Source: Verrucomicrobiota bacterium
GTDB lineage: Bacteria; Verrucomicrobiota; Verrucomicrobiia; Chthoniobacterales; Chthoniobacteraceae
Direction: 5' to 3'
Length of the DNA: 64,000 bases
Assembly: GCA_009885995.1 (NCBI GenBank)
Contig: VFJQ01000023.1
Location: 62,001 to 126,000 of the forward strand
Shown: piece after piece, positions 52,127 through 53,170 of the stretch
How positions within the stretch are numbered: position 1 is the first letter of the stretch
How the letters are laid out: the number at the start of each line of letters is the position of its first letter
Translations under genes and position numbers: made by a program
The notes under the pieces: model-generated
The model's database searches: none
What the model was told of the DNA's origin: nothing
The model's input: the letters and a program-made list of their open reading frames with translations, nothing else

Positions 52127-53170
52127 ATGAAGCTCGTCGCGCGCGGCCGCACGATCGAGTTCCCGCGCCGCCCGCTCATCATGGGCATCGTGAATCTCTC
52201 CGCAGATTCGTTCAGCGGTGACGGAATGGACGACATCGACGCCGCGGTGGAGAAAGCGCGCGCGCTCATCGCCGAGGGCGCGGACATCATCGACGTGGGC
52301 GCCGAGAGCGCGCGCACGAATCGCGGGCCGATCAGCGAGGCGGAGGAGATAGACCGGCTGTGCGGGTTCGTGGCGAAGTGGTCAGTGGTCAGTAATCAGT
52401 ATTCAGTAATCAGTGATCAGAACGAGAGCGCCCCCGCGGCGACTACTGATCACTGTCCACTATTTACTGATCACTCCCCCCCGCCTCGTCACCCGCTCCT
52501 TTCGCTAAACACCTGGCGCCCCGCCGTCGCCCGCGCGGTGCTGCGCGAAGGCGGAGACCTCCTCAACGACATCGGCGGCCTGCCCACCGACGAAAACGCC
52601 CGCATCTGCGCGGAGACGGGCGCGGCGCTGCTCATCATGCACTCGGTCGGCGAGCCGAAGGTCGCGCACACGCACGTGGGCTATCGCGACGTGATGGACG
52701 CGATGGACGAGTTCTTCGCCGAAAAGATCGCGCTGGCCGAAGCAGCCGGCCTCCCGCGCGACGCCATCGTGCTCGACCCCGGCATCGATTTCGCCAAGCA
52801 GCGCGACGACAACCTGCGCATCTACCGCGACCTCGCCCGGTTGCACCGCTTCGAGCGGCCGATCCTCCTGCCCGTCTCGCGCAAGACCGTCATCGGCGAC
52901 GTGCTGGGGGTGGGAGCAGGGAGCGAGGAGCAGGGAGCAGGGAGCGAGGAGCAGGGAGCAGGGAGCAAGGAGCAGGGAGCAGGGAGCGAGCAGGCGGCCG
53001 GGGCCACTCCCTGCCCCCTGCCCCCTGCTCCCTGCTTCCCGGGCCACGCCCGGGATGCGGGCACGGTGGCGTGTATCGTCGCCGGGATGCTGCGCGGGGC
53101 GCAAATCTTCCGGGTTCACAATGTGCGTGCGGCCAGTCAGGCGGTGCGGATCATCGGCGCGATCGGGTGA
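52127..53170 (+). CDS. folP: Dihydropteroate synthase carrying two in-frame palindromic insertions
   Basis: IMGIVNLSADSFSGDG, GADIIDVGAESARTNRGP, LLNDIGGLP, ALLIMHSVGEP, IVLDPGIDFAKQRDDNLRIYRDLARL, LLPVSRKTVIGDVLG; interrupted by KWSVVSNQYSVISDQNES...TDHCPLFTDHSPPP and GAGSEEQGAGSEEQGAGSKEQGAGSEQAAG...PCPLPPAPCFPG. Confidence 0.93.
   Translation: MKLVARGRTIEFPRRPLIMGIVNLSADSFSGDGMDDIDAAVEKARALIAEGADIIDVGAESARTNRGPISEAEEIDRLCGFVAKWSVVSNQYSVISDQNESAPAATTDHCPLFTDHSPPPRHPLLSLNTWRPAVARAVLREGGDLLNDIGGLPTDENARICAETGAALLIMHSVGEPKVAHTHVGYRDVMDAMDEFFAEKIALAEAAGLPRDAIVLDPGIDFAKQRDDNLRIYRDLARLHRFERPILLPVSRKTVIGDVLGVGAGSEEQGAGSEEQGAGSKEQGAGSEQAAGATPCPLPPAPCFPGHARDAGTVACIVAGMLRGAQIFRVHNVRAASQAVRIIGAIG
52378..52474. 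repeat. In-frame palindrome in folP built from 7-mers (TCAGTAA family)
   Basis: GTGGTCAGTGGTCAGTAATCAGTATTCAGTAATCAGTGATCAG ... CTGATCACTGTCCACTATTTACTGATCAC. Confidence 0.92.
52912..53040. repeat. In-frame palindrome in folP built from 7-mers (GGGAGCA family)
   Basis: About 11 consecutive GGGAGCA/AGGAGCA/GGGAGCG units on one arm; ACTCCCTGCCCCCTGCCCCCTGCTCCCTGCTTCCC on the other. Confidence 0.92.

What the first reader, a model, noticed from the sequence alone, without database searches (positions are those of the whole stretch)
52378..53040. folP (dihydropteroate synthase) carries two different palindromic insertions in one reading frame
Seen: a TCAGTAA-type element gives KWSVVSNQYSVISDQNES...TTDHCPLFTDHSPPP, and a GGGAGCA-type element gives GAGSEEQGAGSEEQGAGSKEQGAGSEQ...CPLPPAPC. 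Both sit between canonical DHPS motifs (after the ESARTNRG segment, and right after SRKTVIGDVLG) and the frame remains open to a normal C-terminus. DHPS is essential in most bacteria, so insertions there should be functionally tolerated. Inference: both fall in surface loops.
Basis: partly seen in the sequence, partly recalled or inferred. Interest (0 to 1): 0.85.

Follow-up and report, generated by a model that had tools for sequence, protein, structure and literature searches.

The report
Seven-base palindromes inserted within a gene
A soil-type bacterium (Chthoniobacteraceae) has two different hairpin-forming repeats, each built from seven-base units, inserted in frame into a spare copy of a folate-type gene, and the same kind of repeat also sits inside its only detected leucine and methionine tRNA-charging enzymes, so these repeats evidently scatter through important genes and are tolerated rather than needed.

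Summary
ORF 52127-53170 (347 aa) is a dihydropteroate-synthase (DHPS) homologue with two unrelated heptamer-array palindromes in frame: ATCAGTA-type (about 52379-52485) and GGGAGCA-type (about 52910-53041). Orthologues in the same family lack both.

The central premise fails. This is not the essential folP. An intact canonical folP, next to cdaA, lies on contig C84. The window gene is a conserved paralogue (SIDT changed to S[IL]NT family-wide) that 7 of 35 family genomes appear to lack.

GGGAGCA arrays are dispersed in this genome (37 exact dimers; 0-4 in 58 relatives). They lie in frame inside leuS and metG (each the only copy found), argS, galE and other genes. Other genera carry other heptamers. 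The same loops (DHPS paralogue alpha2-beta3; LeuRS editing domain) have been hit independently by different heptamers.

Most likely these are lineage-specific, mobile or self-propagating heptamer palindromes, kept where they are in frame, stop-free and in a surface loop. How they spread is unknown; no cognate transposase was found. Precedents: in-frame REPs (double uvrA insertions in Opitutus terrae), Rickettsia palindromic elements, and heptamer repeats of other bacteria. Verdict: new variant of a known kind.

The parts
52127..53170 (+). DHPS-like paralogue ('folP2'), 347 aa, open through both insertions
   Evidence: ORF; TIGR01496 211.8 bits; conserved in Verrucomicrobiota with SINTWRP/DPGIDFAK/RVHNV motifs
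52379..52485 (+). Element 1: ATCAGTA-type heptamer palindrome; encodes WSVVSNQYSVISDQNESAPAATTDHCPLFTDHSPP; stop-free in only one of six frames, the one used
   Evidence: Inverted repeat, fold z -4.5, frame table, absent in relatives
52381..52420 (+). Element 1 left arm: GTCAGTG GTCAGTA ATCAGTA TTCAGTA ATCAGTG ATCAG
52446..52475 (+). Element 1 right arm: CTGATCACTGTCCACTATTTACTGATCACT
52910..53041 (+). Element 2: GGGAGCA-type heptamer palindrome; encodes VGAGSEEQGAGSEEQ...PCPLPPAPCFP; stop-free in all six frames
52912..52987 (+). Element 2 left array (GGGAGCA variants in a 21-nt higher-order period)
   Evidence: family D1
53007..53039 (+). Element 2 right arm (CTCCCTGCCCCCTGCCCCCTGCTCCCTGCTTCC)
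52018..52105 (.). Neighbouring intergenic palindrome of the CGCAGAGG (8/9-mer) family just upstream of the paralogue
53855..53988 (+). Third heptamer palindrome (GTCCAAA type) in frame inside the next gene (PVC-type CxxCH haem-binding protein, 53479-56829)
54621..54671 (.). REP-like palindrome with TGTAG/CTACA ends, in frame in the same next gene

Best explanation
Elements 1 and 2 are members of two families of heptamer-array palindromes: tandem copies of a 7-nt unit, a short spacer, and the complementary array. Such families multiply separately in each Chthoniobacteraceae lineage and land at many chromosomal sites, inside genes as often as between them. In the window two of them landed in two loops of a dispensable DHPS paralogue: the alpha2-beta3 loop and the loop between beta7 and beta8. 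They persist because each insertion keeps the frame, has no stop in the frame used, and adds a flexible low-complexity linker outside the conserved core. Frame-breaking insertions in needed genes would be removed by selection. The resulting peptide is most likely translated and neutral or nearly so. Shown: presence, frame, empty sites in relatives, genome-wide dispersal, lineage specificity, recurrence in the same loops. Inferred: mobility, translation, tolerance. Unknown: the enzyme or process that copies the arrays.
For: Empty sites in orthologues. Dispersal and lineage specificity: 37 exact GGGAGCA dimers in this genome, 0-4 in 58 relatives; a different heptamer, ATTCGTC, dispersed in genera g6 and g9 and absent from this genome. 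In-frame GGGAGCA arrays inside queG, argS, leuS, metG, a UbiD-family decarboxylase, galE, mutL, with empty sites in relatives shown for galE and leuS; leuS and metG are the only copies above cut-off. Same loops hit by other heptamers: DHPS paralogue in L195 (AAAATCC), L201 (CATTCGG), L260 (TCGTCAT), each with 0 of 2000 shuffles reaching the observed period-7 match; LeuRS editing-domain loop in L326 (CAGCAAT), L333 (AATGACG), L342 (ATTTCAG). Period 7 stands out in Chthoniobacterales-like loci: 12 exact arrays in 290 kb against 1 of period 8 and 2 of period 9. AlphaFold: barrel confident, inserts at pLDDT about 50 and about 40; best PDB match E. coli DHPS.
Against: No transposase, no target-site duplication and no excision or transposition event was found. 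The three best Y1-transposase loci are not flanked by heptamer arrays. Spacers differ between most copies, which is unusual for a unit that is copied whole. Translation of the inserts is not tested. The counts of in-frame genes rest on about 18 loci and a simple self-trained codon model.
Confidence: 0.78

Rival explanations
1. The gene is a decaying pseudogene; the insertions survive only because nothing selects against them.
For: The paralogue is absent from 7 of 35 family genomes while the canonical folP is present; two large inserts in one gene.
Against: The frame is open through both inserts although element 1 has stops in 5 of its 6 frames; all conserved DHPS-paralogue positions outside the inserts are kept; identity to the nearest homologue is 89% over the aligned columns. 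The same kind of insert sits in the only leuS and metG found, which cannot be pseudogenes.
Confidence: 0.12
2. The arrays arise in place by replication slippage of chance heptamers, and the opposite arm is written by intrastrand template switching; nothing is mobile.
For: Tandem structure; one-armed arrays exist; spacers differ between copies; some other genomes carry the unit only as one long array at a single locus (G255, G182).
Against: The same heptamer recurs at about 20 unrelated loci in this genome but hardly in relatives; galE and leuS relatives show no seed sequence at the site.
Confidence: 0.15
3. The inserts are adaptive protein modules (linkers that modify the enzyme or its contacts).
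For: The same loops are used repeatedly in different lineages.
Against: The peptide differs completely between lineages; the same peptides occur in unrelated proteins; most orthologues lack an insert; low model confidence. Permissiveness of the loop explains the recurrence more simply.
Confidence: 0.05
4. Intron-like removal: the palindrome is excised from the RNA before translation.
For: Strong hairpins.
Against: No group I/II intron or intervening-sequence feature was seen; all inserts keep the frame and are stop-free, which removal would not require.
Confidence: 0.03

Closest known systems
GTAG/CGTC REP elements inserted in ORFs, including Opitutus terrae (Verrucomicrobia) with double REP insertions in both uvrA genes and tRNA synthetases in other species (PMC3733652)
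   Same: Short palindromes dispersed in the genome, in frame inside genes for repair and translation proteins, sometimes twice in one gene, sometimes at the same site in orthologues
   Different: Here arms are tandem heptamers, no GTAG/CGTC tag on elements 1 and 2, no linked Y1 transposase found, and the unit differs by lineage
Rickettsia palindromic elements (Ogata et al. 2000, 2002; as reviewed in PMC10969869)
   Same: About 100-150 bp palindromes in frame in many unrelated genes
   Different: RPE families have a conserved whole-element sequence and conserved encoded peptide; here only the heptamer is shared and spacers vary
Dispersed heptamer repeats: GGGAATC in Xanthomonas and GGGGA(T/C)T in Nostoc (PMC4692102); TAACTGA in Beggiatoaceae, Cyanobacteria, Bacteroidetes (PMC4679880)
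   Same: 7-nt tandem units scattered through the genome, with occasional inverted pairs; element 1's unit TCAGTAA differs by one base from TCAGTTA, the complement of TAACTGA
   Different: Those are mainly intergenic and mostly one-armed; here arrays are commonly two-armed and intragenic in frame
Nostoc tRNA-Leu intron P6b stem-loop, built of one of two repeat motif classes (PMC4476775; heptanucleotide nature from my own knowledge)
   Same: Hairpin stem whose two sides are built of short degenerate repeats, lineage-variable
   Different: One RNA locus, not dispersed in proteins
DHPS (FolP) and non-canonical second DHPS genes such as M. tuberculosis DHPS 2 (PDB 2vp8)
   Same: TIM-barrel DHPS fold and most motifs
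   Different: SIDT replaced by S[IL]NT and ESTRPG by ESARTN in the whole clade

Membership tests
Functional, essential DHPS (FolP) | Scores above the DHPS equivalog cut-off and has the DHPS fold | tested here: met
   TIGR01496 211.8 vs cut-off 162.6; best fold match E. coli DHPS, TM 0.84 by target
Functional, essential DHPS (FolP) | Pterin-pocket Asp in SIDT and Thr in ESTRPG (catalytic role from my own knowledge) | tested here: not met
   Aligned to Y. pestis DHPS the Asp of LSVDT is Asn and ESTRPG is ESARTN; N128 and A62 are invariant in 40 paralogues
Functional, essential DHPS (FolP) | Sole DHPS of the genome | tested here: not met
   Intact folP at C84:21184-21885 (TIGR01496 304.7 bits) next to CdaA
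GTAG/CGTC REP | 20-40 bp stem-loop tagged at one end by GTAG or CGTC | tested here: not met
   Elements 1 and 2 lack it; the palindrome at 54621-54671 does carry TGTAG/CTACA ends
GTAG/CGTC REP | GTAG REPs linked to a RAYT (Y1) transposase | tested here: not met
   Eight Y1_Tnp matches in the genome; the strongest are not flanked by heptamer arrays
Rickettsia palindromic element | In-frame palindrome inside unrelated protein genes | tested here: met
Rickettsia palindromic element | Whole-element sequence conserved between copies | tested here: not met
   Only heptamer arms shared; spacers differ in most copies
MITE | Terminal inverted repeats with target-site duplication and a mobilising transposase | tested here: inconclusive
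   Inverted arms present; relatives too distant at DNA level to read target-site duplications; no transposase linked
Dispersed heptameric repeat (STRR-like) | Tandem 7-nt unit recurring at many loci of one genome | tested here: met

The most novel reading that the evidence does not exclude
Chthoniobacteraceae carry an undescribed process that writes lineage-specific 7-nt units as paired arrays (palindromes) into new sites, switching the unit between genera, for example by templated repeat addition or fold-back synthesis at stalled forks rather than by classical transposition. Protein loops such as those of the DHPS paralogue and LeuRS would then be its recorded, selection-filtered targets.
Probability: 0.15. 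Interest if true: 0.85.

Novelty: new variant of a known kind. Interest (0 to 1): 0.5.

Why it matters
In-frame palindromes in genes were described for Rickettsia and for REP elements. This adds a variant in which the arms are tandem heptamers, the heptamer differs by lineage, and the same surface loops of conserved enzymes are hit again and again by different heptamers, including the only leuS and metG found in the genome. Because 7 is not a multiple of 3, a heptamer array reads the same in all three frames, so a stop-free unit such as GGGAGCA is open wherever it lands. This gives natural loop-insertion data for essential enzymes, and it leaves a testable question: what copies a 7-nt array to a new site?

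Tried and rejected
Native-spacer idea (the arms bracket original host sequence; suggested by NESAPAAT in element 1): rejected, because in galE relatives all native residues are accounted for outside the element, so the spacer came with it. RAYT/Y1 transposase as mobiliser: no heptamer arrays within the fetched flanks of the strongest Y1 genes. Chance repeats: controls with reversed units give 0 two-armed arrays for every family. Wide sharing of GGGAGCA in the phylum: only 6 of 295 genomes carry three exact copies; in those whose positions can be read they are usually one or two loci. First NCBIfam call failed on coordinates and was repeated.

Full report
CHECK. The ORF 52127-53170 encodes 347 aa and is open through two repeats. 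Element 1 consists of ATCAGTA-type heptamers (GTCAGTG GTCAGTA ATCAGTA TTCAGTA ATCAGTG ATCAG), a spacer, and a complementary stretch; element 2 consists of GGGAGCA-type heptamers, a short spacer, and CTCCCTGCCCCCTGC.... Both are inverted repeats and fold better than all 200 shuffles. Orthologues show the uninterrupted gene: usually 3-9 residues where element 1 sits and 5-6 where element 2 sits.

WHICH GENE. The genome (5.94 Mb, 181 contigs, 91% complete) has another DHPS on C84, with MGVLNVTPDSFSDGG, ESTRPG, SIDT, DPGIGFGK and RVHDV, 304.7 bits to TIGR01496, adjacent to a gene with CdaA_N and DAC domains. The window gene scores 211.8 bits and belongs to a separate conserved clade present in most of the family and order at up to 83% identity over the middle segment and across Verrucomicrobiota. 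The clade has Asn instead of Asp in SIDT and ESARTN instead of ESTRPG. Seven of 35 same-family genomes (G002, G003, G004, G010, G030, G032, G033) show only the canonical-type match at 33-38% identity, so the paralogue seems dispensable, with the caveat that some of these genomes are incomplete. The names and identical loop sequences (L022 and L198) place the family as Chthoniobacteraceae, with Chthoniobacter flavus Ellin428 as a cultured member.

WHERE THE INSERTS LIE. AlphaFold2 with 40 sequences gives pLDDT 77 overall, with the barrel strands and helices confident, element 1 (residues about 86-122) near 50 and element 2 (about 262-305) near 40; element 1 lies between helix 71-97 and strand 124-128, element 2 between helix 255-259 and helix 308-322. 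Foldseek's best matches are solved DHPS structures. From TIM-barrel geometry, element 1 is in an alpha-to-beta loop, the face opposite the active site; element 2 lies in the beta7-beta8 connection, where an effect on the dimer contact cannot be excluded (inference).

A GENOME-WIDE FAMILY. GGGAGCAGGGAGC with at most one mismatch occurs 122 times against 6 for the reversed control. Exact dimers number 37 here and 0-4 in each of 58 relatives. In a 1.80 Mb sample, period-7 arrays are dominated by this unit; two-armed arrays never occur for reversed control units. GGGAGCA arrays are inside genes and frame-preserving in queG, argS, leuS, metG, a UbiD-family decarboxylase, galE, mutL and, by the peptide alone, gcvP and a large predicted membrane protein; others sit at gene ends (purN start, glycosyltransferase end) or between genes. 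One array (L098 6664) is not frame-preserving under the codon model. leuS and metG have one copy each above cut-off. In contrast, the CGCAGAGG and CACGAAGG families lie almost wholly between genes.

WHY HEPTAMERS SURVIVE IN GENES. Seven is coprime to three, so an array repeats a 7-residue peptide that is the same in every frame of a strand. GGGAGCA is stop-free on both strands; pure ATCAGTA is not, and element 1 is stop-free in only one of six frames, the one used. About half of all heptamers (8264 of 16384) are open on both strands, so openness alone is not remarkable; retention by selection is the simplest reading.

RECURRENCE IN THE SAME LOOPS. In relatives the element-1 loop carries other heptamer inserts: AAAATCC in L195, CATTCGG in L201, TCGTCAT in L260 (period-7 match not reached in 2000 shuffles each), a different palindrome in L222 and a REP-like one in L225. 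Peptides in further homologues (P0012, P0015, P0016, P0033, P0058, P0083, P0085) look like other heptamers, without DNA to prove it. The LeuRS editing-domain loop has 17 native residues in most relatives, but carries GGGAGCA here, CAGCAAT in L326, AATGACG in L333 and ATTTCAG in L342. ATTCGTC arrays (the complement of GACGAAT) are dispersed in genera g6 and g9, including the L333 genome G011, and absent here. Among the loci, exact period-7 arrays reach 41 per Mb in Chthoniobacterales-like records, against 3.4 for period 8 and 6.9 for period 9, and 6.6 per Mb in the other records.

MECHANISM. The spread of one unit over unrelated loci in one lineage needs copying between sites. I found no dedicated enzyme: eight Y1-transposase matches exist, and the strongest are not flanked by arrays. 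The galE comparison shows that the spacer arrives with the element, yet spacers differ among copies. I therefore commit to 'mobile or self-propagating palindromes of unknown agent, retained by selection for frame and tolerance', at 0.78, with in-place slippage plus template switching as the main rival.

KNOWN WORK. In-frame REPs, including double insertions in both uvrA genes of the verrucomicrobium Opitutus terrae and REPs in tRNA synthetases, were reported in PMC3733652. Rickettsia palindromic elements are reviewed in PMC10969869. Heptamer repeats are described in Xanthomonas/Nostoc, mainly intergenic (PMC4692102), and TAACTGA in Beggiatoaceae and Cyanobacteria, with the in-frame reading LSVISYQ noted (PMC4679880). 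I found no report of intragenic, two-armed, lineage-specific heptamer palindromes; the library searched is open-access only.

Noticed in passing
window 53479-56829: The next gene (PVC-type haem-binding protein) also carries a GTCCAAA heptamer palindrome (53855-53988) and a REP-like palindrome (54621-54671) in frame.
   Followed up: partly
window 56828-56951; also L185, L192, L149, L147, L115, L164: A longer two-hairpin palindrome family (GGTGGAACGCG...CGCGTTCCACC) is dispersed in the genome; in the window one copy overlaps the end of the haem-protein gene.
   Followed up: no
window 48027-48099 and 17869-17927: CACGAAGG-type octamer palindrome and a CGCAGAG-type palindrome; these 8/9-mer families are almost always intergenic, unlike GGGAGCA.
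   Followed up: partly
L222 and L225 (other Verrucomicrobiota): The same DHPS-paralogue loop holds non-heptamer palindromes, one with TGTAG/TTACA ends.
   Followed up: partly
P0016, P0033, P0045, P0065: Homologues seem to share a similar inner insert flanked by different outer heptamer peptides, as if arms were replaced around a common core.
   Followed up: no
Verrucomicrobiota DHPS paralogue clade (A1): A widespread DHPS-like enzyme with an invariant Asp-to-Asn change in the pterin-pocket motif; its function is unknown.
   Followed up: partly
L100 108-2921 (leuS), residues about 575-604: A second 30-residue insertion relative to most relatives, not heptameric; G016 (L324) shares it.
   Followed up: no
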